25,624 nt of DNA from a virus: positions 1 to 25,624 of IMG/VR virus record IMGVR_UViG_3300011010_000165; one strand, given 5' to 3'. This document shows, in pieces, positions 2,214 to 19,754 of the stretch. A model generated the notes under the pieces. That model saw only the letters and a program-made list of their open reading frames with translations, was not told the origin of the DNA and did not search any database. A program made the position numbers and the translations under genes. How positions within the stretch are numbered: the stretch's first letter is position 1; each line of letters opens with the position of its first letter.

Positions 2214-2687
2214 CTACTTTAACCCCAGGGTACGCATTGCGCTAGGCCAGATAATATTCCATGGGAAGCCCTGTTGTGCTGGAACATCACGCAAAGCTTG
2301 GCGGTAAGCCGTCCAAGAAGCGGAAGCAAGTGTTGGGGCGTCAGTCAACTGCGTCCAATCACACTCGGCTAGGAGTTGATTACGTTTTTGTCTTGCGTCT
2401 TTAGCACAAGAAGCAGTGCGTTCTTGAATTTGTTCTTCAGTTGCTGGTATTTCAAGCCATTTTTCCACCCAGATACTGTCGTTTAAGATTGCGGTGCGCT
2501 TCAAATTAATGGTGTGTGTTTCCCGTGGAGGAGTGGTTGGCCTGACCGGCACCACCCCAAAAGATGCAGCGGTAGCATCGTCAATTTGTCCAGGAAAACT
2601 AGTGCGGGGGGTATCCCGCCTAAGGTCTGTAAGTGTGTAAGGATACCGCTCAACTGTTTTGTTGGCGGTGAGTTTAGCATAAAACAT
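2214..2687 (-). CDS. Phage_tail_APC-type tail fibre assembly chaperone
   Basis: 157 residues. The C-terminal half carries the signature of the phage tail assembly chaperone family (Phage_tail_APC, PF16778). RNQLLAECDWTQLTDAP lies at about 102-118, WTAYRQALRDVP at about 125-136 and GFPWNIIWP at about 140-148. In this family the block reads R-x-x-L-L-x-x-x-D-W-T...W-x-x-Y-R-Q-x-L-R-D...G-F-P-W. The N-terminal half (MFYAKLTANKTVERYPYTLT) is the variable region that often begins with a short beta segment copied from fibre-associated proteins. Members are usually encoded beside fibre genes and are thought to assist fibre folding or attachment, as it would here. Its ATG overlaps the previous stop as TAATG. 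The family call is strong; the chaperone role is inherited from the family name. Confidence 0.8.
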   Translation of the reverse strand: MFYAKLTANKTVERYPYTLTDLRRDTPRTSFPGQIDDATAASFGVVPVRPTTPPRETHTINLKRTAILNDSIWVEKWLEIPATEEQIQERTASCAKDARQKRNQLLAECDWTQLTDAPTLASASWTAYRQALRDVPAQQGFPWNIIWPSAMRTLGLK

Positions 2688-2938
2688 TAGGCAGCCTCCA
2701 ATTCGGCAATTTGATCCGCGATAACGTCACGGATAATAATGGCCTTAAGCTGTTCGATTTTGCTAGTAGAAAGCAAATGTGTCAAGTTGTCCTTGAACTC
2801 AATAATGGCAGTGTTATCGGCGTGCTCTGTGTTAATTTTGTCGATAGCACGGGCGTAATTGTCGATGTTAATTTGGTAGTCTGCGATCTCATTGTTGCGG
2901 CATTCGAGAGCGGATTTGAGAATTGCGAGTTTGTTCAT
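2687..2938 (-). CDS. Small helical protein of unknown function in the fibre cluster (83 residues)
   Basis: 83 residues, predicted almost entirely helical: NKLAILKSALECRNNEIADY, then NIDNYARAIDKI and a C-terminal EQLKAIIIRDVIADQIAELE. Hydrophobic residues recur at coiled-coil-like spacing and there is no signal peptide or membrane segment. It lies between the beta-propeller protein and the tail assembly chaperone, and its TAA overlaps the chaperone start as TAATG. No convincing Shine-Dalgarno precedes its ATG. Small helical proteins at this position are common in fibre modules and may bridge fibre and chaperone or trimerise a stalk. I do not recognise a named family, so function remains unknown. 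Confidence 0.65.
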   Translation of the reverse strand: MNKLAILKSALECRNNEIADYQINIDNYARAIDKINTEHADNTAIIEFKDNLTHLLSTSKIEQLKAIIIRDVIADQIAELEAA

Positions 2939-2946
2939 GGGAAAGT

Positions 2947-4044
2947 TTAGTTCGGGCTAAAGTTTACTTGAGGCAACACCGTGCCAGTGGCGAAGCTTGG
3001 CGCAGTGAAAGCAGTACCAAAACCAGATGATGAGTCCCATGCGTAAACTGAAATGCACTTGTGATTGCCATAATCATAATCATAGGCTAGCGCTATAGCC
3101 GTGCCATCAGCATTAAAATCTACGGATCTCCCTAAGATACTGGGCAGTGGCGTTGCAGGGTTACCATACTTAGTACCATAGCCACTGGCTGACCAAGGGT
3201 AAACAGAAACATGCGGGCTGTCCATGTGTGCAAAAGCCACTGCTAAACCATCAGGGCTAAAGGCAACTCCCGCTGTTATACCTTGAGGCAACGTTGCTGG
3301 CTCGGTGTATCTAGTGCCAAAACCAGTTGATGATGACCAGGGATAAGCCGCAAGGCGGGGACTGCTTCGTATTGCAAAAACTATTTGATTGCCATCTGGG
3401 CTAAATTTCACATCATATGCAGCGATTGAAGTAAAGCCCGGAAAGGAGGGATCAGCATACTTGGTACCAAAGCCAGTTGTTGATGACCATGGGTAAGCAG
3501 CAGCAGCAGCATTGGGGCTGAGACCTCCCCCTACTACTACAGTTGCGCCATCAGGGCTAAATGTTATTGAGCTGCCCCTCGTGTCAAAAGATGGAAGCGT
3601 TAGTGGATTGCTGTATCTATTGCCAAAACCAGAAGATGACCATCGGTAAGCAGAAATAAACGGAGAATTGGTGTGCGCCATGGCTACAGCCAATCCATCG
3701 GGACTAAAAGCTATCTTATTTACTGTGCCCGCTAATACTGTCTCTGGATCAAGATATTTAGTACCAAAACCAGAAGATGACCATGGGTAAGCACTGATCC
3801 AAGGAGCTCCTGTTGATGATCCTATAGCTATAGCTGAACTGTCAGAATTGAACCGTACACATGTTCCGCTATTAGGCAATGGTTGCGGATCGCTGTATTC
3901 ACTACCAAAGCCAGCGGGTGACCATGAATAAACTTTCACATAGGGGTTTGTGTTTTGGGTTGAAATTGCTATGTAATTACTTCTTTTTGCGCCGCCAGAA
4001 GCGCCTGCGGCTCCCATTAATAAATTTTGTGTAATTGGGTTCAT
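2947..4044 (-). CDS. Seven-repeat beta-propeller (WD40/YVTN-like) tail-associated protein
   Basis: 365 residues, composed almost wholly of seven repeats of about 47-50 residues. Each has a Y-x-W motif followed by SSSGFGTKY and then FSPDGLAVAxA. The Y-x-W motifs sit at about 39, 86, 133, 184, 234, 282 and 334. The FSPDG-like turns sit near 65 (FNSDS), 113, 162, 214, 262, 310 (FNADG) and 362 (FSPN). Seven units, each with one S-P-D-G turn, match a seven-bladed propeller. The extra N-terminal strand NYIAISTQ (23-30) would complete the last blade, whose strands stop at FSPN (velcro closure). Residues 1-20 (NPITQNLLMGAAGASGGAK) look like a short anchor. There is no signal peptide. It sits directly after the tail fibre gene, two bases away, and before a fibre chaperone. 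A virion adhesin role fits but is inferred; carbohydrate or protein ligand is unknown. Confidence 0.75.
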   Translation of the reverse strand: MNPITQNLLMGAAGASGGAKRSNYIAISTQNTNPYVKVYSWSPAGFGSEYSDPQPLPNSGTCVRFNSDSSAIAIGSSTGAPWISAYPWSSSGFGTKYLDPETVLAGTVNKIAFSPDGLAVAMAHTNSPFISAYRWSSSGFGNRYSNPLTLPSFDTRGSSITFSPDGATVVVGGGLSPNAAAAAYPWSSTTGFGTKYADPSFPGFTSIAAYDVKFSPDGNQIVFAIRSSPRLAAYPWSSSTGFGTRYTEPATLPQGITAGVAFSPDGLAVAFAHMDSPHVSVYPWSASGYGTKYGNPATPLPSILGRSVDFNADGTAIALAYDYDYGNHKCISVYAWDSSSGFGTAFTAPSFATGTVLPQVNFSPN

Positions 4045-4045
4045 A

Positions 4046-7000
4046 TCAAGTGGTGTAGTTGATCAAGCTAGACGCACGCCAGCGGGTGCCGCCGTCGTCA
4101 GTGACAAACATAAACAAATGGGTCTTGCCTGTGGTCAACGTGGGAGCCGTACTGCCTGGCCATTCTACACCGCTAAACCATGTAATAGTGCCACTGGTGT
4201 GGGTGACTTCTAGCGTGAAGGCAAAAGCGCGACTGGCTGGAGTGTTGCTTACCGTAAAGGTGCTGTTTCCATTAATTGTTTTAGTGAAATAATTGGAAGT
4301 GGAAAGGTCCAGATCAAGTGCTGTAACTGCAGTAATATTGCTGTCATACGGACCAGTAACTTGAAAACGTCCAACCGAGGTGGCTCTGTAACGCTCGAGG
4401 CCACCAGTCACTAGCACCAGTGTATCAGCCGAGGGCCTGTGGAAACCAGTATCAGGATCCCCAGCTACAGCCAGTCCAGGGAGTAAAGCCGTACCCGCCG
4501 CAACCAGCAGAGGGCCCGTCAGCGTGTCGCCAGCCTTCAACACATTGGAAGAAGCTGCGCCTGTCAATGCTGCCGTAATGGTTCCAGCAGAGAAGTTATT
4601 ACTGCCGTCACGAGCAACAATCGTTGAGCCTGTATTGGCGCTGGTCGCGGTAGTAGCGCTATTGCTTACTTTACCCGCAGTGGCAATAGTTGCAAGCTTG
4701 GTATCGACAATACCAGCACTTGCATTGATATCAGCGTTAACGATAACGTCAGCAGCAATGGCAGTTGCATTACCAACGCTAGTTACATCACCAGTCAAAT
4801 TTGCATTGGTGGTAACAGTAGCTGCATTGCCTGTACATGTAGCGGCGCTAGTCGCAAGTGATGCCGTACCAGTTAATGCAGCAGTGATTGTACCAGCGCT
4901 AAAGTTGCCGCTTGCATCGCGTGCAACAATTGCACTTGCAGTATTAGCATTTGTTGCAGTGGTTGCTGAGTTTGCAACTTTACCTGCTGTTGTGATTTGC
5001 GCTAATTTAGTATCAACAATTGCAGCACTAGCATTGATATCAGCGTCAATAATAACGCCAGAACTAATAGCAGTAACGCCTGTATTGCCAATTGATATAT
5101 CGCCAGTAACTGGCCTGACAGTTGCAACGCCTGCGCTGCTGCCTACAAGAATATTAGCATTTGCTAATGCAGCAAGTTTACTGTAACTAATAGCAGCATC
5201 AGATTTAATATCAGCATCTATAATTACGTCCGAACCAATAGCAGTAACGCCTGTATTGCTAATTGATATATCGCCAGTAACTGCTGTAACAGTAGCTACA
5301 TTACCGCTGCTGCCAACAAGTATATTTGCACTTGTTAATGCAGCTAGTTTGCTATAAGCAATAGCAGCAGATGCGTTTATATCAGCATCAAGAATCGTGC
5401 CATCCAGCAACATTGCGCTAGTAACGCTTCCAGTGTCGCCTGTTGTTATTACCGTTCCAGTAGCATTTGGGAATGTAATGGTGCGATCAGCAGTAGGGTT
5501 TACAACTGTAATAGTAGTTTCATGTGCGTCTGCGCTGCTGCCTTCAAAAGTTAAACTGCCTCCTGCGCCAATTTCTAAGTTGCCTGTTATTGTGCCGCCA
5601 GTTATTGATAGCTTTTCATCATCTAATTCTTCAATTGCACTTTGAACATTAGTTGCTACAATATCTCCCGCAGGTATAAATTCAATAATTGCAGCACTAT
5701 TAGCTGCTGCAACTGTTGTTGATACATCAACAAGCGTCCATGACGTTCCGACGGATATCAAGAAATCTGGGGGCTGTAATTGCACGGCAGGGGCTGGTGC
5801 CGTACCCTGACCTGGTGTTCCTACTACAACATAGTACTGCTTGTTTGTTTCAGATGAATTAGGTAATACACCACCTACGGCAAGACTTAATCCTAAACCG
5901 GCTGCCGATACAGAAGTCATACGATTTGTTGCTGCGTTATAGATACCTGCAAAAACTAATTCACCACTTGTTACCGTAACTGATAGCCATGCACTACCAT
6001 TCCAAATATATAAATCACCATTTAATTCATCCCAAAACAATTGCCCTTGGAAATCAGCCGTAGGAAATTCTACTACTCCAGATGTGCTCCCACTACCACC
6101 AAATTTTATTGTAGACGAATTAGCTAATTTTTCACCAGTAATAGTGCTAGTGCCAATTAAGTTTGCCGGAAATGTACCACTTGTAATCTTTGATGTATCT
6201 ATGCTTGGTATATCGCCAGCACTTAATGTTGCGCCAGTAGTAACATGCCCCCGGGCATCTACAGTTACTTTGGTGTAGGTGCCAGCCGTTACTGAGCTTG
6301 TATGATTTAATACGCCGCCAGTAACGGTAAGCCCCGTCCCTGGTTGCACTGCACCGTTAGTATTTGCGGTAGCTACTGGTAAATCAGTAGCAACTAATGC
6401 TCTGAATGTAGGTATAGCAGCACTGCCCGTAGTAGGGCCGCTAAGTATTGTCGCTGCGGCTTGAGTGTCAAGACTGCTTGTAATTGTCACAACACCTGTT
6501 AAGTCTACAGCCGCACTAAAAGTAAGCGGAGTAGTATCAGCAAATACAAAACTATTTACAATGCCAGCAGTTTGTTGCCATTCAGAACCATTCCAAACAT
6601 AAGGTAATTTTGTAACTGTATTAAACCATTGCTGCCCAGTAAAAGCACCGTTTATGTTAGGGGATACTGCTGCAATAACTGTTGTAGCTGCATCAGCAAT
6701 CTTGGCAGCAGTTACAGCATCATCATTAATCTTTTGCGTAGTAACTGCATTATTAATAATTTTTGCAGTTGTTACAGCATCAGTCCCAATGGTTGCAGCA
6801 AACGATCCGGTGCCTGTACCTGTTACATCACCAGTTAATGTTATAGTTTGATCGCCAGTATTAGTACCACTGCTAGCGCCTGAATGGGTGCCACTTACCG
6901 TGCCAGATTGTGTCGCTAACGTGCCAAGTCCTAGCGTGGTGCGTTGCGTTGCAGCATCTGCATCATCAAGCAGTGCGCGACCCGCAGCAGTAAGTGTAAT

Positions 7001-7699
7001 TTCTTCTATGTCGCCAGCGCCTGCGGTAGCGCGACCCAATAGCTTATCTGTAGCCGTTACATTTTGGATTTTTGCATAAGTAACTGCATCGTCTATGATC
7101 TTTGCAGTTGTTACCGCATCAGCAGCTAATTTGGTAGCACTAACCGCACTAGTCGCTATTTTTGCTTCGGTTACTGCTAAAGCTTGAATTTTGGCAGTTA
7201 TTACAGCATCAGTTGCAATTGCAGCAGCCGCTAAACCAGAAGCGTCGACCTTGGCTGTAGTAACAGCATTTGCAGCTAGCTTGTCAGTTATTACCGCAAG
7301 ATCTTCAATGCCTGCGGTTGGTGCAATAACTTGTTGGTAAACGCTGCCATCATAAACTTTTAAGTATTTAGTAGTGCTGCTAACATGGCCGCGACCTTCA
7401 AAATTATTAACCGTAGGTTCTGTTGGGCCATAATTGACGCTTGAATCATTAGCTAACTTTGCCGCTGTTATAGCATCATCTGCAATGGCAACAGTGCCAA
7501 GCTTTGTTGCGCTGCTTTGGTTCAGTGTGGCTAAATCAATAGTGCTGTTATCCGCTAAAGCAGCAGCCCCTTGGAACAGGCTTTTAGCTGTTATTTTTTT
7601 GGTTTCGCTGGAGCTGCTATCGACAATGGGCAACAAGTCGTTTGCTGCTATGGAATTTTGCCCCAGTTCAGTCAGTTGCGATATGCGCTGGTCAGCCAT
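4046..7699 (-). CDS. Large repetitive tail fibre protein
   Basis: 1,217 residues. The N-terminus MADQRISQLTELGQNSIAAN, then DLLPIVDSSSSETKKIT, is the typical virion-anchor start of cyanophage-like fibres. Residues about 130-345 are a stalk of short repeats built on DAVTTAKI and AVTEAKIA units. Three WNG-type beta motifs appear at about 105-123 (YLKVYDGSVYQQ), 354-375 (PYVWNGSEWQ) and 550-573 (LYIWNGSAWL). Longer tandem repeats fill about 770-1050, with YSKLAAL, NILVGSS, VTGDISI and GNFSAGTITAALTG each present two or more times. Near 1079-1111 is the GDPDTGFHRPSADTLVL and GGLERYRATSVGRF module. The C-terminus (about 1136-1217) holds NYFTKTINGNSTFTVSN and a final TGKTHLFMFVTDDGGTRW. Low-complexity A/T/S/G/D composition with almost no Cys (one) fits a fibrous trimer. 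The C-terminal domain is the likely trimerisation or host-contact tip. Receptor unknown. Confidence 0.85.
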   Translation of the reverse strand: MADQRISQLTELGQNSIAANDLLPIVDSSSSETKKITAKSLFQGAAALADNSTIDLATLNQSSATKLGTVAIADDAITAAKLANDSSVNYGPTEPTVNNFEGRGHVSSTTKYLKVYDGSVYQQVIAPTAGIEDLAVITDKLAANAVTTAKVDASGLAAAAIATDAVITAKIQALAVTEAKIATSAVSATKLAADAVTTAKIIDDAVTYAKIQNVTATDKLLGRATAGAGDIEEITLTAAGRALLDDADAATQRTTLGLGTLATQSGTVSGTHSGASSGTNTGDQTITLTGDVTGTGTGSFAATIGTDAVTTAKIINNAVTTQKINDDAVTAAKIADAATTVIAAVSPNINGAFTGQQWFNTVTKLPYVWNGSEWQQTAGIVNSFVFADTTPLTFSAAVDLTGVVTITSSLDTQAAATILSGPTTGSAAIPTFRALVATDLPVATANTNGAVQPGTGLTVTGGVLNHTSSVTAGTYTKVTVDARGHVTTGATLSAGDIPSIDTSKITSGTFPANLIGTSTITGEKLANSSTIKFGGSGSTSGVVEFPTADFQGQLFWDELNGDLYIWNGSAWLSVTVTSGELVFAGIYNAATNRMTSVSAAGLGLSLAVGGVLPNSSETNKQYYVVVGTPGQGTAPAPAVQLQPPDFLISVGTSWTLVDVSTTVAAANSAAIIEFIPAGDIVATNVQSAIEELDDEKLSITGGTITGNLEIGAGGSLTFEGSSADAHETTITVVNPTADRTITFPNATGTVITTGDTGSVTSAMLLDGTILDADINASAAIAYSKLAALTSANILVGSSGNVATVTAVTGDISISNTGVTAIGSDVIIDADIKSDAAISYSKLAALANANILVGSSAGVATVRPVTGDISIGNTGVTAISSGVIIDADINASAAIVDTKLAQITTAGKVANSATTATNANTASAIVARDASGNFSAGTITAALTGTASLATSAATCTGNAATVTTNANLTGDVTSVGNATAIAADVIVNADINASAGIVDTKLATIATAGKVSNSATTATSANTGSTIVARDGSNNFSAGTITAALTGAASSNVLKAGDTLTGPLLVAAGTALLPGLAVAGDPDTGFHRPSADTLVLVTGGLERYRATSVGRFQVTGPYDSNITAVTALDLDLSTSNYFTKTINGNSTFTVSNTPASRAFAFTLEVTHTSGTITWFSGVEWPGSTAPTLTTGKTHLFMFVTDDGGTRWRASSLINYTT
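5066..5112 (-). repeat. Direct repeat copy 1 in tail fibre gene
   Basis: A 47-base segment, nearly identical (one C/T difference seen) to 5237-5283. It encodes the VTGDISIGNTGVTAI region of the fibre. The offset of 171 bases is exactly 57 codons, so the duplication keeps the frame and lengthens the stalk by one module. Surrounding modules are diverged copies of the same unit. Confidence 0.8.
5237..5283 (-). repeat. Direct repeat copy 2 in tail fibre gene
   Basis: Partner of 5066-5112, encoding VTGDISISNTGVTAI. The near-identity at nucleotide level, beside other modules that match only at protein level, suggests a recent duplication or gene conversion. Confidence 0.8.
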
Positions 7700-13436: not shown

Positions 13437-13840
13437 CAGTCATCACTCCTAGGATCACGGATTTCGCCAATTAGTGATACGCTAATGCTTGAACGACCTG
13501 GCCTTACTGATTGAACTGATGGCGGATCTTTATATTCAAATCGTAAATTATCAATCGTACCATTGGCAATGCTAACTAAACCTGAATCCATGCCGCCCAT
13601 CGTTGTTGCGGATAGCTGAAATCTTTTATTAATTGCGGTTTGGTTGCGATAATGATTAATGATCGCGGTAGCAGTTGAGTCAGCTACATTATCAAAACTC
13701 ATATCTAGTGTTGATTGGCTTGGTGCATTACCAAATGTGCGTTTGGTTACCACCCCTGACAATGAACGATAGGAACGTTGCGGATAAATGCCTGGCGTGA
13801 AGTTGCGTTGGCTTGGTGTAAAAGAAGGGAAAGCAGCCAT
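13436..13840 (-). CDS. M-like minor tail protein
   Basis: 134 residues. AAFPSFTPSQRNFTPGIYPQ, then RSLSGVVTKRTFGNAPSQST, LDMSFDNVADSTATAIINHY and the long strand FEYKDPPSVQSVRPGRSSIS, ending VSLIGEI. Phage minor tail proteins of the gpM type (PF05939) share this layout: an N-terminal P-S-x-x-x, an R-x-x-G/FG turn, a helix before H-Y/F-x, then beta strands closing with an L-x-E/G-x-I. It starts immediately at the end of the tape measure gene (TAATG) and precedes the L-like gene by ATGA, exactly the lambda H-M-L order. In lambda, gpM is a ring in the tail tip around the tape measure C-terminus. The family match is moderate, the position strong. Confidence 0.65.
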   Translation of the reverse strand: MAAFPSFTPSQRNFTPGIYPQRSYRSLSGVVTKRTFGNAPSQSTLDMSFDNVADSTATAIINHYRNQTAINKRFQLSATTMGGMDSGLVSIANGTIDNLRFEYKDPPSVQSVRPGRSSISVSLIGEIRDPRSDD

Positions 13841-16800
13841 TAGCCTAAACCTACTCTGCTACGGGTGGATGGTGATTGTTGTAGTTTATCTAATGTCATG
13901 GTCATACCACGTCTAGCGCCTGCTTTTGTCGCTTCCGCTCTGGTTTGCATCATTGCTGCTTCCAGTTGTTCACGGCTAACATAATCGGTATTGCCAAACC
14001 TTGTAGTTTCAAAGCTCATGCTAAGCACTGGTGATACAGAATTATTATTACTATTATTATTCCCCATAGCACTTCTTAATGATGACTCTTGATTAAATTG
14101 TACAGGAATAGACCTCCCATTAGGTAGAGGAACAATGGCTTCGTTATACTTACCCTCGCCAACCATACCAAGTGTAGGCCCCGATACCATCCCACCATCA
14201 GCAAAACCAAATATTTTACCAAATCCACCAATAGCGCCACCTGCACCCATCAAGATAGAACCAATACCACCCAAGACATTAGAAGTACCTCCTTTACCGA
14301 TTTGACTGATACCAGCAGCAATCCCAGCAATACCTGCGGCTGCTGCACCAATCCCCCCAACAAAACTAGTTAAACCTTCACCAAATGTAGCTCCTTGAGT
14401 TTTAACATCCTTGCCAGCAGCAGTAATTGTATTGGGTAAATCAACTATTAAAGCTTGCTGAAAAGGTTCGGAAGATATTTGTAAATTAGCAGTTGCTTCA
14501 TCTAAAGAAGAAGGAATTTCAGCTAAACCTGCTCTAATTTGTTCATTAAGACCACTAAACATACCTTCAGTGTTAAGACCAGTAAACATATCTTTAGTGT
14601 TAAAGTCTGCAAAAGCACTTTCAGAAGATACAAATGGTTCCGTTTTAATTGGTACACCTTTACTAAAGTCTTCTAAAGACATTGGATCGACTTCTTTTCC
14701 TGAAACTTTACCACCAAGAGCGCTTGTGTTGGCCTTAATAGCTTCTGTATTCGCATCAGTGGCAGTTGTATTGGCGACTACAGGCACTTCAGCTTCATTC
14801 ACCTTAGGTATATCAGCCTTACGCGCAAACAATCCTCCTAATGATTTTTTCATTACTTCCTCTACAGGAGCCATGGCAAAATCAAGGAAAATTGTTAGTA
14901 CTTTATCAGTTAAACCTTCTTGGAATTTTTGCAATGCATCCACTGCATCTTCGCCTGAAATCACAGCTTTCAAGAAGCCCTTGTAATCGCTTAAAGTGCT
15001 GCTAACGAAATTACCAATTAGGGCTTTAGTATCTTCTAAATTTCTTGCAACTTTTGTTAAATCATAAATTTCTTGTTGTTTCTCTGGGCTTGAATCACGA
15101 TAATCTAATGAAATTTGCGTTTTAAGCTCTTGGTCTGAAGTAAACGCTTGTGCCATTTTCATTCGATCTTTCAATGAAGTTATTGCTGATTTAAATGAAG
15201 TTTCCGTCGTTAATTTTGCGGTTCGAGCTAGTTCATTGTTAAACTCAGCTTGTAATTTTGGGAGACCAGCAAGAATAGCTTTATATACTGCGATCTGGTC
15301 TGTTAAGAATTTTATTTGTTCCTTTTCTTTTTCTGTTGGCGTTTTTATCTTATTGTATTCTTTTAAACTTGTTTCATTTTCTGTAATTTTATCAGTGTAA
15401 GTCTTCATGGCTAAGGCGCTTTCTTTTATTGCTTTTGCCTTTGCAACTTCCATGTCAATCATTTGTTTTGATGCTCCTTTGGACTCAAGGTTATTGCGTA
15501 GCTCAAGCAAATCATTTTCTAATTTTTGTTCTTTTACGGGGAAAATAGAATCTATGTTTTGTTTTACTGAAGTGATAGTTCGTTGAAGAGCTAAATCATT
15601 TTCATTTCTAAGTATTATCGATTTTTCTAATGCACGATTTTGCGCATCTTGTTGCTCTACTGCGAGGTTACCTTCAGCTTTATCTTCACGACGCCCCATA
15701 GCATATTCGCCTGGCCTTGTGTTGGTATCAACAGATCTAGACTTGGGTCTGGGGCCACCTGAGCCCACATTCAAGTAGGCAAGCGAAGCTCCCGCCTGTC
15801 CGCTGCGGTAACCATGTGGAGCGCTTTCTTGATGAAGGTGAGCTGGACCAGCTCCTGTATCACCTGTCTTCGCAATAATTTGATTTGCCTCAAAGCTCTG
15901 TCCAGCAGCTAACAACACTTCACTTAAATGCATCGACATGCCAGTAATACCATTGTTAAGCATTACTTCAATCGTTTTGCCTGCTTTGCCCCTTCCAACC
16001 TTGTCAATGCTTTTTACTATACCTCCAATGGAATAAGAAAGTGCAGTGCCAATAGGCGTTGCAAAATCAAAACCTTCGTGAGTACCATTGCGGTACGCAC
16101 GAGATTCGCCTGGTAGACCTGTTACCTCGAAACCTTGGAATTTAGATCCCTTGGCAGGATTCACGGATCCAAGGCCACCACTGACGGGCTTCCCTGCTTT
16201 TACAGTTGCTGACCTTAAATCTTGAACAGCTTTAACTGCATCTAATTCTGCTTTTCTAATGCTATCAATACGACGATCTTCAATTGCTTTTAAATCTTGC
16301 TGATGTTTCTTTTGACGAGCTTCAATGGAATCAAGCCCTGATATTTCACGTGCAAAATAGTCATCTTGTAATGCTCTCTTGTGATCATATTCAGCATCAC
16401 TCATTCTTAATCGACTATCAAAACTGCTTTGATCAAGAGCAATTTGACGGTTTGCTGCTTCTTGATCTAACTGACTTTGCCTATTTGCACGTGTATCTTC
16501 TAGTTTTTTTTCTTGCTCCCTCTTTCTCTTCTCCTCTTCTGTTTCTCCTTCGTTGGTTCCTGTACCTAACGTGGGATCATTTAGTCCAAGCCGTTTTGCG
16601 TTACGCAATGCCTGTTGCTGCTGTTCTTTTAAAAGAATTGAAGACTTGCGTGTTTCGGCTGAAATTTGCCCAGCCTGCTCTCGTGCTTGGGACAATTGTG
16701 GCATCAAGAATGCTTGAATCTCAAATCCTTTTCCTCCTTTTTTGAGTTGATTGCCAGAAATAATTCCAGCAATTTCATTGGAATATTCCGCCGCACCCTT

Positions 16801-19722
16801 CAATGATGCCATGTCACTAGTGGAAATTATTGGCCTACCTCCACCTCTCATGATTGCCTTGTTAGTGTCATGTATACGCTCAAGAGTTTTAAGTCCTTCC
16901 GACACAACTCTATTTTTAGCCAATTCTTGATTTAATTGAGCTGTCACTGGAAGCACTTGGCCCATAGCAGCGGCATGTGCTCCTTCTTTTATTGCATCCC
17001 TAGAAGCTTCTCCCGCTTCTTTAGCTCTATCTCTCATAGATAAGAATGCCGTTGCAAGAGATCCCACTAAAACCACTAAAAGTCCAATGCCGGTGCTGGC
17101 TATTAATCCTTTTACTGCGGTGCCAAATCCCATTGTGGCAATTTGAGCACCAGTAGCTTGTACTCCAACAACCCTAAATGCGCCTGCCAATAAAGTGCTT
17201 TTAACCGCTGCTGCCATGCTAATAGTTCCGTTAGCCGCCACCACTGTATTCACAGTCGCCAATGTCCCCGTAAATAATAGGGCTGCTAGTCTTATAGCAG
17301 TGAAGCCCAAAGCAAAAAGTGTAAGATTTCCAATTATAGATGTAAAATTACCGCCAAGAATAGTAAGAAACGGGCTTAGCACGTTGCCAATAACGCCAGC
17401 CAAGTTCATCACAAAAGTACCAGCTTTTGCTAGCTCAGTGGTAAAATTTCGTATATCATTTACTCTTTGAACCATTGCGGGATCTTGCAAGGTTGTATTT
17501 AGCTGTTTATAACGCATTTCCAGTGCTAATACATTTTTTTCTGCTGCTTTAATCTGCTCTGGTTTAGCACCGCCAACTTTTAAATCCACGACAATTTGCT
17601 TTGCGTCTTTTATTTGCGCTTGAACCCTTCCTACCTCTCCCATTGCAATTTGAGCTGCAATTCCAACATCTCTGAGCATCCTTGATAGTGGACCTAATGT
17701 TGCTTGAGCCGCCGAATCAGCCAAAGGCGCAAAACTTTCTAACGTGCGAGTAAAATCACCGCCAACAGTATTAATCAGACCTTGTAATGATTTACCAGCA
17801 ATTTGAGCACCAGTGCCAAATCTATTGATCAGCTCATCACTTACCTTGGCAAATACTTCTCTAAAGCGATTACCAGTAAATTCCCCATCCTCCATTGCTT
17901 TGCTAAAGTCCTTCACGGACATCCCAGCGGCTTTAGCGAAAATTGCCAACGCTCCAGGCAACACGTCGCCTAATTGTCCTTTGAGTTCTTCTGCCATGAT
18001 TTGGCCTTTACTGGCCATTTGCCCGAAAGCATAAATAACGCGCTCAGCTTTATCTGGCGTTAGTTGTAAAGCCGCAGTAGCAGCACTAATGCCAGTAAAG
18101 AGTTTTTCAATGGACCCGGAATCAAATCCTGTTGGAGCCATTGAAGCAAAAAGCCTAACAAAACCAGTTCTAGTAGTTTCTAAATTAAGGCCAAATGCTC
18201 GCTGAACATTATCAACAAAAAGCATTTCTTTTGCAAATGTACCAGTTTCTTGTGTGGAAACTTTTAATGCATTTGTAAATTGCTGTTGGCTTTTTGCTGC
18301 ATTAAGAAGCTGGCCAGGTAAGCTTATGATAAAGCTTAATCCTTTATATGCAGCGCCATAAAGCAATACTTGTTTAGTCGCCTGTCCAAGTTCTCCCGCG
18401 ATGCCTTTAAGTCCGCCAATTAACGGAAGTTGACTTGCACTGAAGTTTCGGCTGGATGCAGCAGACACATCTAATGCTGTTTTAAATTTCTCCATTTGGC
18501 TGCCAGCGCCAATGAAAGTTGCTGGTCCTTGTTTCCCTATCGGCATCCTCCCGTCAGAAGGGAATCCACCACCACCTGCGCCACCACCGCCAACAGGCAT
18601 TCCCCCGACCGCACCACCACCTGCGGCTTGTTGAACTTGTGTGGCTCTTTGAGAGAAACCACGGAAACCCCCTTGAGTCACAGGTAGCGGTTGAACTTGA
18701 GCAGCGTTCCTGGAAAATTGCAGAAAACTATTGGGATCAGCAATAGGAGGCGTACCACGAAGACGTGAAACCATTCTTGGTTCATATCCTGAATATCCAA
18801 ATTGGCCCCTATCCCCACGAGCATAAGGAGCTTCGGATCCTACAGGTAGCGGGCCAATGGGAGCTGAATACATGCGATTGCCGACAAGTTGTTGACGCAA
18901 TCTCCCCGTAGTAGGACCAACACCAGCCCCACTTATATCTTTAATTTTGGCAAACTCTAATTTCAATAAAGCAACAATTGTTCTAACTTCTGAAATTGAT
19001 TTACTCTTAAAATCTTTTAATCCATTTAAAAAGCCAAGTTCAAGACCATCAACGCTAAATTCACCAATTTGCCTAAATACTTTCGATGGAGATGCAATAC
19101 CAAGTGCATCTTTGATACCGCGAATGCCTTCTTCACCCACCTTGGCGGCAGCTTGCCCAATTTTTGATGAAGAATCCTTTAATCCAGCAGCAAAACCATT
19201 AATTGCTTCTTGCCCACTATTAGTAAAACCTTGAATAATTGATTTTTTATATTCATCTGTTGATGCTTTAGCAAGATTTCCCATCTCGCCGACAGACATT
19301 CCAGCGCCCACCATGGCTTTGCGAGCACTTTGTAATTGCGACCTGCTCAAGCCTTCTATTGCTTGAGAGCCCCTTACGCCTCCTGAAACGGCTCGACCTA
19401 TCTGAGCGGTCCCATCAGAAGGTGGTTTGCCAACTTCTACATATTTAACTTTAATTTCAATGGGAGTAGAAGTTGCTCTACGCAATGTTGCTAAACTTTT
19501 ATTTAACGTACCAATTCTTCTCTTTGCAGCATCAAGCTGACTATCGTTAATTGTTATAACTGGTTTAATTTTTTCTAGATTTGTTAATTGTTTCTCAAAA
19601 TCTACTGTGTCTATTGATAACTTGACACCAAAAAGACGAGTACTTGCTTCTGTAGCTAGCTTGTCTAACTGTGCGCGAAATCCTGCTAGATTTAGCGTTA
19701 CGTCAAGTCTTAATTCAGCCAT
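13840..19722 (-). CDS. Tape measure protein with embedded M23 (LytM) peptidase domain
   Basis: 1,960 residues from the ATG at 19722. A TTG nine bases upstream is less likely, because AGGG lies too close to it. The N-terminus is helical. At about 205-225 GIASPSKVFRQIGEFSVDG resembles a motif usually seen near tape measure C-termini. A glycine-rich linker spans about 361-395. At about 470-640 a tape measure core contains QFTNALKVSTQETG, QMASKGQIMAEELKGQLGDV and FTGNRFREVFAKVSDEL. Hydrophobic segments lie at about 775-900 (membrane-spanning type), with a charged coiled coil at about 1060-1165. An M23 domain follows: HEGFDFATPIG (His1215, Asp1219) and GPAHLHQES (His1295, His1297), the metal ligands of LytM enzymes. 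Then come more helices and a C-terminal VGEGKYNEAIVPLPNGRS. It determines tail length and passes into the cell at DNA ejection. At about 0.15 nm per residue the tail could approach 300 nm. The gene starts after the chaperone gene and ends on the M-like gene start. Confidence 0.92.
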   Translation of the reverse strand: MAELRLDVTLNLAGFRAQLDKLATEASTRLFGVKLSIDTVDFEKQLTNLEKIKPVITINDSQLDAAKRRIGTLNKSLATLRRATSTPIEIKVKYVEVGKPPSDGTAQIGRAVSGGVRGSQAIEGLSRSQLQSARKAMVGAGMSVGEMGNLAKASTDEYKKSIIQGFTNSGQEAINGFAAGLKDSSSKIGQAAAKVGEEGIRGIKDALGIASPSKVFRQIGEFSVDGLELGFLNGLKDFKSKSISEVRTIVALLKLEFAKIKDISGAGVGPTTGRLRQQLVGNRMYSAPIGPLPVGSEAPYARGDRGQFGYSGYEPRMVSRLRGTPPIADPNSFLQFSRNAAQVQPLPVTQGGFRGFSQRATQVQQAAGGGAVGGMPVGGGGAGGGGFPSDGRMPIGKQGPATFIGAGSQMEKFKTALDVSAASSRNFSASQLPLIGGLKGIAGELGQATKQVLLYGAAYKGLSFIISLPGQLLNAAKSQQQFTNALKVSTQETGTFAKEMLFVDNVQRAFGLNLETTRTGFVRLFASMAPTGFDSGSIEKLFTGISAATAALQLTPDKAERVIYAFGQMASKGQIMAEELKGQLGDVLPGALAIFAKAAGMSVKDFSKAMEDGEFTGNRFREVFAKVSDELINRFGTGAQIAGKSLQGLINTVGGDFTRTLESFAPLADSAAQATLGPLSRMLRDVGIAAQIAMGEVGRVQAQIKDAKQIVVDLKVGGAKPEQIKAAEKNVLALEMRYKQLNTTLQDPAMVQRVNDIRNFTTELAKAGTFVMNLAGVIGNVLSPFLTILGGNFTSIIGNLTLFALGFTAIRLAALLFTGTLATVNTVVAANGTISMAAAVKSTLLAGAFRVVGVQATGAQIATMGFGTAVKGLIASTGIGLLVVLVGSLATAFLSMRDRAKEAGEASRDAIKEGAHAAAMGQVLPVTAQLNQELAKNRVVSEGLKTLERIHDTNKAIMRGGGRPIISTSDMASLKGAAEYSNEIAGIISGNQLKKGGKGFEIQAFLMPQLSQAREQAGQISAETRKSSILLKEQQQQALRNAKRLGLNDPTLGTGTNEGETEEEKRKREQEKKLEDTRANRQSQLDQEAANRQIALDQSSFDSRLRMSDAEYDHKRALQDDYFAREISGLDSIEARQKKHQQDLKAIEDRRIDSIRKAELDAVKAVQDLRSATVKAGKPVSGGLGSVNPAKGSKFQGFEVTGLPGESRAYRNGTHEGFDFATPIGTALSYSIGGIVKSIDKVGRGKAGKTIEVMLNNGITGMSMHLSEVLLAAGQSFEANQIIAKTGDTGAGPAHLHQESAPHGYRSGQAGASLAYLNVGSGGPRPKSRSVDTNTRPGEYAMGRREDKAEGNLAVEQQDAQNRALEKSIILRNENDLALQRTITSVKQNIDSIFPVKEQKLENDLLELRNNLESKGASKQMIDMEVAKAKAIKESALAMKTYTDKITENETSLKEYNKIKTPTEKEKEQIKFLTDQIAVYKAILAGLPKLQAEFNNELARTAKLTTETSFKSAITSLKDRMKMAQAFTSDQELKTQISLDYRDSSPEKQQEIYDLTKVARNLEDTKALIGNFVSSTLSDYKGFLKAVISGEDAVDALQKFQEGLTDKVLTIFLDFAMAPVEEVMKKSLGGLFARKADIPKVNEAEVPVVANTTATDANTEAIKANTSALGGKVSGKEVDPMSLEDFSKGVPIKTEPFVSSESAFADFNTKDMFTGLNTEGMFSGLNEQIRAGLAEIPSSLDEATANLQISSEPFQQALIVDLPNTITAAGKDVKTQGATFGEGLTSFVGGIGAAAAGIAGIAAGISQIGKGGTSNVLGGIGSILMGAGGAIGGFGKIFGFADGGMVSGPTLGMVGEGKYNEAIVPLPNGRSIPVQFNQESSLRSAMGNNNSNNNSVSPVLSMSFETTRFGNTDYVSREQLEAAMMQTRAEATKAGARRGMTMTLDKLQQSPSTRSRVGLG
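14039..14061 (-). repeat. AAT trinucleotide repeat encoding an Asn/Ser stretch in the tape measure
   Basis: The minus strand reads AAT/AGT triplets (ATT/ACT on the plus strand), giving NNNSNNNS near the tape measure C-terminus, just before the final conserved segment. It is a flexible linker and a possible site of replication slippage. No frameshift is seen. Confidence 0.6.
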
Positions 19723-19754
19723 ATTCGACAATAGCCCTATTATTCATAATATAG

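What the first reader, a model, noticed from the sequence alone, without database searches (positions are those of the whole stretch)
2947..4044. A seven-bladed beta-propeller protein inside the tail fibre module
Seven repeats of about 47-50 residues, each with Y-x-W and FSPDG, plus an N-terminal strand that could close the last blade. Propellers of WD40/YVTN type are uncommon as phage tail components. The protein sits between the main fibre gene and a fibre chaperone, so it may be a novel adhesin, receptor-recognition disc or glycan-binding tip.
Basis: partly seen in the sequence, partly recalled or inferred. Interest (0 to 1): 0.65.

Follow-up and report, generated by a model that had tools for sequence, protein, structure and literature searches.

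The report
Propeller-shaped cap on phage tail fibre
This phage gene encodes a seven-bladed, ring-shaped protein that hundreds of environmental phages carry directly behind the tip of their tail-fibre gene, always together with one small helper gene, and most likely it is an exchangeable head with which the virus grips its host cell.

Summary
The finding is real. Window 2947-4044 (minus strand) encodes a 365-residue protein with seven YxW repeats. AlphaFold predicts a closed seven-bladed propeller (pLDDT 85, pTM 0.87), the N-terminal strands completing the last blade; best PDB match, a seven-bladed designed propeller (Z 36). It is not isolated: 381 IMG/VR stretches encode relatives of its 14-repeat homologue from a Manatee Spring podovirus. 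(1) Repeat number is quantised: 72 of 83 clusters have exactly 7, 14 or 21 blades, and the only long junctions (52 instead of 47 residues) follow blades 7 and 14, so these are one, two or three rings. (2) The gene sits in a tightly packed cassette: fibre with C-terminal domain 'X', propeller, ~83-aa protein, tail-assembly chaperone; the small gene has a propeller upstream in 140/140 loci. (3) The propeller's N-terminal peptide class tracks the fibre's X domain (60/61), the ring does not (40/66), and the most variable blade loops lie on one face. Best reading: a modular receptor-binding cap docked on the fibre tip. Receptor, virion location and docking are inferred. Propeller receptor-binding proteins are known in other phages, so this is a new variant.

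The parts
2947..4044 (-). Propeller protein, 365 aa, seven four-stranded blades closed by the N-terminal strands
3976..4044 (-). N-terminal peptide MNPITQNLLMGAAGASGGAKRSN (residues 1-23), low-confidence helix; proposed docking peptide for the fibre tip (inferred)
4049..4378 (-). Domain X: C-terminal 110 aa of the upstream fibre, beta-rich, found at the end of the gene before the propeller in most related loci
4046..7699 (-). Main tail fibre gene, 1217 aa (PHROG tail fibre matches); its stop codon ends one base before the propeller ATG
2687..2938 (-). Small 83-aa conserved partner protein, probably a propeller-specific assembly factor (inferred); in relatives always directly behind a propeller gene
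2214..2687 (-). Tail assembly chaperone (Pfam Phage_tail_APC, 3.4e-20), start overlapping the stop of the small gene by one base

Best explanation
The protein is a separate, exchangeable receptor-binding cap for the tail fibre. It is encoded directly behind the fibre and folds into one seven-bladed propeller ring (two or three rings in relatives). It is held at the fibre's distal end by its short N-terminal peptide, which contacts the fibre's C-terminal domain X. The ring's variable loops (b-c and d-a, all on one face) meet the host surface, plausibly a glycan or other repetitive surface polymer. The ~83-aa partner and the APC-type chaperone help ring and fibre to fold and join. Shown by computation: fold (predicted at high confidence), ring quantisation, cassette, tight packing of the genes, co-occurrence of peptide class with X, concentration of variability in the two loops. 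Inferred: virion location, docking, receptor binding, role of the small protein.
For: Fold: pLDDT 85.2, pTM 0.87 with 17 natural sequences; VIA Z 36.1, rmsd 2.0 over 286 residues to the seven-bladed designed propeller 7bid, and Z 33.5 to the YVTN propeller of an archaeal surface-layer protein, 1l0q. Rings: 7 (20), 14 (48), 21 (4) of 83 clusters; 32 of 39 in the set reached through the small gene. Junctions are 47 aa except 52 aa after blade 7 (47 fourteen-blade proteins) and after blades 7 and 14 (four 21-blade proteins). Cassette: small gene preceded by a propeller in 140/140 loci (65/65 in loci found through the small gene); propeller followed by small gene and chaperone in 41/41 clusters with room. 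Fibre stop to propeller start is -1, 1 or 8-9 nt in all 55 measured loci and 1 nt in the window. Domain X ends the upstream gene in 51 of 72 clusters by a first automatic pick and in 72 of 82 by a wider second pick. N-terminal peptide class against X class: no crossing. Nearest neighbour has the same peptide class for X 60/61, chaperone 56/61, small protein 52/64, ring 40/66, chance about 0.37 (chaperone versus ring Fisher p 5.5e-5). Entropy of the b-c loop 2.06 and d-a tip 2.40 bits against 0.71-1.25 for the strands and 1.16 for the c-d turn. Relatives occur fused behind a tail-terminator domain (ZRG1), beside a collagen-like fibre (POR1), and in a phage entry named for a coagulation factor 5/8 C-terminal domain, a frequent carbohydrate-binding module (general knowledge).
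Against: No virion or binding data. The peptide-X association may be only physical linkage: the two stretches are neighbours in the DNA. Ring nearest neighbours are blurred by blade homogenisation (fourfold-site identity between blades 0.46 against 0.34 expected), so 40/66 may understate ring linkage. The peptide and X classes were regular expressions set by eye after inspection. The a-b turn on the other face is also fairly variable (1.88 bits). Some upstream genes lack X (L087, L093, L094, L098, L104). No sugar site was identified.
Confidence: 0.55

Rival explanations
1. Structural connector: the ring is an architectural part of the fibre or baseplate (spacer, hinge or hub), like the seven-bladed propeller domain in the SU10 nozzle, and binds no host receptor itself.
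For: Published nozzle propellers with velcro closure. One relative is fused to a tail-terminator domain. Domain X weakly resembles phage spike and connector domains including T4 gp9 (Z 6-8, within the noise level the tool states).
Against: Nozzle propellers are embedded in a larger protein; here the ring is a stand-alone gene product with 1, 2 or 3 rings, exchanged against the fibre tip, which fits an end piece better than a load-bearing link.
Confidence: 0.2
2. Enzyme: the ring is a lactonase-, gluconolactonase- or depolymerase-like hydrolase acting on the host envelope.
For: Several 6-phosphogluconolactonases are among the best fold matches (Z about 33); Pfam Lactonase matches the Salicola phage relative (1.5e-9); the XacN1 relative sits in a protein with a GDPD domain.
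Against: Invariant positions of the 17-sequence alignment are glycine, proline, aromatic, valine and lysine positions of the repeat motif; no invariant Asp, Glu or His that could form one active site. NCBIfam gives no lactonase match to the window protein. The number of rings varies.
Confidence: 0.08
3. Non-virion protein acting inside the host, for example a decoy or inhibitor against bacterial propeller-based immune sensors, or an assembly factor only.
For: Highly repetitive WD40 (WRAP) propellers in bacteria are tied to STAND immune proteins (PMC9218822).
Against: Packed into the structural operon right behind the fibre, invariant cassette, and a fusion to a virion domain in ZRG1.
Confidence: 0.08

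Closest known systems
Manatee Spring podovirus MW202701 'wD40 repeat protein' UOF80687
   Same: 50% identity over 89% of the window protein; same gene order with homologous small protein (41%) and chaperone (40%)
   Different: 14 blades (two rings); a podovirus; annotation only, no experiment
PhiKZ gp131 C-terminal seven-bladed propeller (4GBF) and phi11 receptor-binding protein (five-bladed), as described in PMC4901313
   Same: Propeller at the periphery of a phage tail, proposed or likely receptor-binding domain
   Different: Domains within a larger fibre polypeptide; here a separate gene with a small partner gene, and 1-3 rings per chain. No sequence relation tested directly
SU10 nozzle propeller (PMC9509320)
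   Same: Seven blades with velcro closure in a phage tail
   Different: Embedded in the nozzle protein lining the DNA channel
WRAP-type highly repetitive WD40 propellers (PMC9218822; fold matches 7bid, 2ymu)
   Same: Repeats amplified from single blades, 14 blades as two sevens, best fold match
   Different: Bacterial STAND-type proteins; here a phage fibre module. Window blades are only about 40% identical
beta-propeller lectin plus collagen shaft fibres of eCIS (PMC12923769)
   Same: Propeller combined with collagen-like fibre, as beside the POR1 relative
   Different: One polypeptide in contractile injection systems; sequence relation not tested
PHROG 19311 (unknown function)
   Same: Window protein matches at 2.2e-12; POR1, ZRG1 and Salicola relatives match too
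   Different: No function assigned

Membership tests
WD40/PD40 beta-propeller superfamily | Score above a curated Pfam cut-off | tested here: met
   PD40 PF07676 30.0 bits, cut-off 20.9; WD40 PF00400 itself not reached (21.7 of 27)
WD40/PD40 beta-propeller superfamily | Closed ring of four-stranded blades | tested here: met
   Predicted structure and Z 36.1 to 7bid
WRAP-like recently amplified propellers | Median blade-to-blade identity above 60% | tested here: not met
   Window protein mean 0.40; median over family proteins 0.61, L085 0.79 (means, not medians, per protein)
Phage receptor-binding protein | Encoded in the tail fibre module | tested here: met
   Directly behind the fibre gene, before a tail assembly chaperone
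Phage receptor-binding protein | Present in virions and binds the host | not testable with these tools
   Needs proteomics and binding assays
Beta-propeller lectins (tachylectin-2, PVL, AAL) | Sugar-binding site repeated in each blade | not tested
   Site geometry was not examined
6-phosphogluconolactonase / lactonase | Curated family score | tested here: not met
   No match of the window protein to these models in NCBIfam or Pfam
Phage_tail_APC chaperone (neighbour 2214-2687) | Score above Pfam cut-off | tested here: met
   72.1 bits against 26.6

The most novel reading that the evidence does not exclude
A widespread, previously undescribed class of modular phage adhesins: free-standing propeller caps with one, two or three seven-bladed rings that plug onto a conserved fibre-tip domain through an N-terminal peptide, with a dedicated ~83-aa partner, so that phages exchange the receptor-reading ring without changing the fibre.
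Probability: 0.45. Interest if true: 0.75.

Novelty: new variant of a known kind. Interest (0 to 1): 0.55.

Why it matters
Receptor-binding proteins of most environmental phages are unknown. A recognisable four-gene signature, present in hundreds of uncultured phage contigs, would mark the receptor-reading part directly from sequence, and its 7/14/21 ring pattern with blade homogenisation is a natural record of how propellers are built and swapped. The small partner gene is a sensitive search tag for such modules.

Tried and rejected
A viral-contig scan with the window protein alone found nothing, and an alignment including the distant Pseudomonas phage relatives had no stretch conserved enough to search with; the repeat-rich homologue P0012 and the small partner gene worked. 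Whole-ring duplication as a recent origin of the 14-blade forms: blade i is hardly closer to blade i+7 (0.622) than to other blades (0.611), so not supported. Pure purifying selection on each blade: fourfold-site identity exceeds expectation in many proteins, so recent blade homogenisation occurs; in the window protein the excess is small (0.41 against 0.34). Chance repeats: rejected by shuffles. Fusions of X with blades, or of blades with the small protein, in one ORF: none found. A published description of this phage family was not found, in an open-access library only. The PhiKZ and lectin propellers did not appear among the fold matches listed; the lists were capped, so this says nothing. 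The window's tail protein P0007 only weakly matches a Synechococcus phage, S-LBS1 (27% over 14%), so the host is not known.

Full report
What was checked. The reported ORF exists at 2947-4044 but on the minus strand. Cutting at the YxW motif gives seven units of 47-52 residues (the last one truncated) behind a 37-residue N-terminal piece. The exact string FSPDG is in four units. A repeat profile scores it 408.5 bits, and 2000 shuffles at most 13.3; the profile includes this protein's own repeats. Pfam PD40 (30.0 bits, cut-off 20.9) and PHROG 19311 (2.2e-12, unknown function) match.

Structure. AlphaFold2 with 17 natural family members gave pLDDT 85.2 and pTM 0.87. The chain begins with strands 24-28 and 36-42 and ends with strand 359-362, so the N-terminus completes the last blade. 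Residues 1-18 are low confidence, with a short predicted helix. Foldseek's top match is 7bid, a seven-bladed designed propeller. VIA-align gives Z 36.1, rmsd 2.0 over 286 residues; 6-phosphogluconolactonases and the YVTN surface-layer propeller 1l0q follow at Z about 33. A shared propeller fold says little about function.

Relatives. In named phages the closest is a 714-aa 'wD40 repeat protein' of a podovirus genome from Manatee Spring (50% identity). Weaker relatives are in Pseudomonas phages ZRG1 and POR1, Salicola phage CGphi29 and Xanthomonas phage XacN1. In IMG/VR 381 stretches encode relatives of the Manatee protein; the best 80 were kept, which favours 14-blade forms. A scan with the small neighbour gene, which does not look at the propeller, gave 156, 80 kept. 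Four bacterial contigs also carry relatives; two of them, in a Tepidiforma and a Fimbriimonadales record, appear to lie in prophages, judged by eye from the neighbouring ORFs.

Ring quantisation. Complete propeller ORFs collapsed at 90% identity give 83 clusters: 20 with 7 repeats, 48 with 14, 4 with 21 and 11 others. In the subset reached through the small gene, 32 of 39 are multiples of seven. In 14-blade proteins every junction averages 47 residues except the one after blade 7, which is 52 and mostly carries a signature like VAWSTVGDxxYxQFxAVAH. In 21-blade proteins the long junctions follow blades 7 and 14. The simplest reading is one, two or three closed rings. Several exceptions lack one or two blades in one ring (for example 7+5 or 6+7), and others hold divergent blades the profile missed; collapse of repeats in metagenome assembly is possible.

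Cassette. The small gene has a propeller directly upstream in 140 of 140 loci with room (65 of 65 among loci found through the small gene). Propeller clusters found through the propeller are followed by small gene and chaperone in 41 of 41 with at least 800 nt downstream. In the window one base separates the fibre stop from the propeller ATG, and the chaperone start overlaps the small gene's stop. Across 55 loci the fibre-propeller gap is -1, 1, 8 or 9 nt, which suggests translational coupling. The gene upstream usually ends in a ~90-residue domain, here called X: 51 of 72 clusters by the first automatic pick, which took the longest nearby upstream ORF. A second, wider pick, which took any X-bearing ORF ending within 260 nt of the propeller ORF or, failing that, one with a WP..V.WP motif near its end, gave partners for 72 of 82 plus-strand clusters. 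The two figures come from different selection rules, and the second was written after seeing the first. X is predicted as a beta-rich domain (pLDDT 86); its best structural neighbours are phage spike or connector domains, but at Z below 8, which the tool says may be only a common arrangement.

What moves with what. Propeller N-termini fall into a few classes (MFSS/MFSA, ML.xK, MIGGKLL, LLMAA). They pair with classes of the X tail without a crossing: 33 MFSS with GQNY, 16 ML.xK and 6 MIGGKLL with GARVGDA, 6 LLMAA with GKDVK or SLINY, the rest unclassed. The classes were regular expressions set by eye after inspection and slightly widened. MFSS with GQNY occurs with 7, 14 and 21 blades. In a nearest-neighbour test, X shares the peptide class in 60/61, the chaperone in 56/61, the small protein in 52/64 and the ring in 40/66, with about 0.37 expected by chance (chaperone versus ring p 5.5e-5, treating loci as independent). 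Loci L038 and L079 have identical small-protein regions but different N-termini and X tails. So rings appear to have been exchanged against fibre tips, and the chaperone, though farther away than the ring, follows the fibre tip more closely. Two cautions: the N-terminal peptide is the immediate DNA neighbour of X, so linkage alone could give that part of the result; and homogenisation among blades blurs ring phylogeny.

Variable surface. Over 960 blades the highest entropies are at positions 6, 7, 35 and 37, in the b-c and d-a loops, which in propeller topology lie on the same face. Regional means are 2.06 and 2.40 bits, against 1.16 for the c-d turn and 1.88 for the a-b turn of the opposite face; region limits were drawn from the model's strands after the per-position values had been seen. 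This favours a recognition face but is not a clean contrast. Invariant residues are those of the repeat motif, with no invariant Asp, Glu or His, which speaks against one conserved active site.

Mechanism. The best-supported reading is a receptor-binding cap: fibre tip X holds the propeller by its N-terminal peptide, the variable face reads the host surface, and the two downstream genes assist assembly. The fold, the rings, the cassette and the co-variation are computed here; docking, virion location, ligand and the role of the small protein are inferences.

Known context. Propellers are established in phage tails: the five-bladed receptor-binding protein of phi11, the PRD1 P2 head domain and PhiKZ gp131C (PMC4901313), the SU10 nozzle (PMC9509320) and a Kelch-type virion protein of CBB (PMC5259590). 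eCIS fibres combine propeller lectins with collagen shafts (PMC12923769). Fourteen-blade proteins folding as two sevens are known from WRAP (PMC9218822). What was not found described is a separate propeller gene with a dedicated small partner, 1-3 rings, and exchange against a fibre-tip domain. The verdict is a new variant of a known kind.

Noticed in passing
window 15823-16083 (-): The 1963-aa tape measure protein (13840-19731) carries an internal peptidase M23 domain (residues 1217-1303, Pfam 1.4e-10).
   Followed up: no
L002:11783-13930 (MW202701): In the Manatee Spring record an open frame with domain X lies directly before the propeller where the record annotates 'ribonuclease E' on the other strand; the propeller's annotated start is probably about 100 bases too early.
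   Followed up: partly
L055 and L071: Two nearly matching 14-blade loci differ by one missing 47-aa blade: natural blade loss or assembly collapse.
   Followed up: partly
L085:10067-11884 and L088:10088-11842: Prophage-like relatives in Tepidiforma and Fimbriimonadales records have a long alanine-rich C-terminal extension and share the ending TGGFGSSRMGSSKSGS.RFWRP.
   Followed up: no
L003:7996-9798 (phage ZRG1): A propeller fused behind a tail-terminator domain through a long PDPDPT repeat linker.
   Followed up: partly
L093, L094, L104, L098, L087: Upstream genes end in other C-terminal domains than X, and their propellers have other N-termini; the ending in L093/L094/L104 looks by eye like the window's P0009 (776-1216 -).
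   Followed up: no
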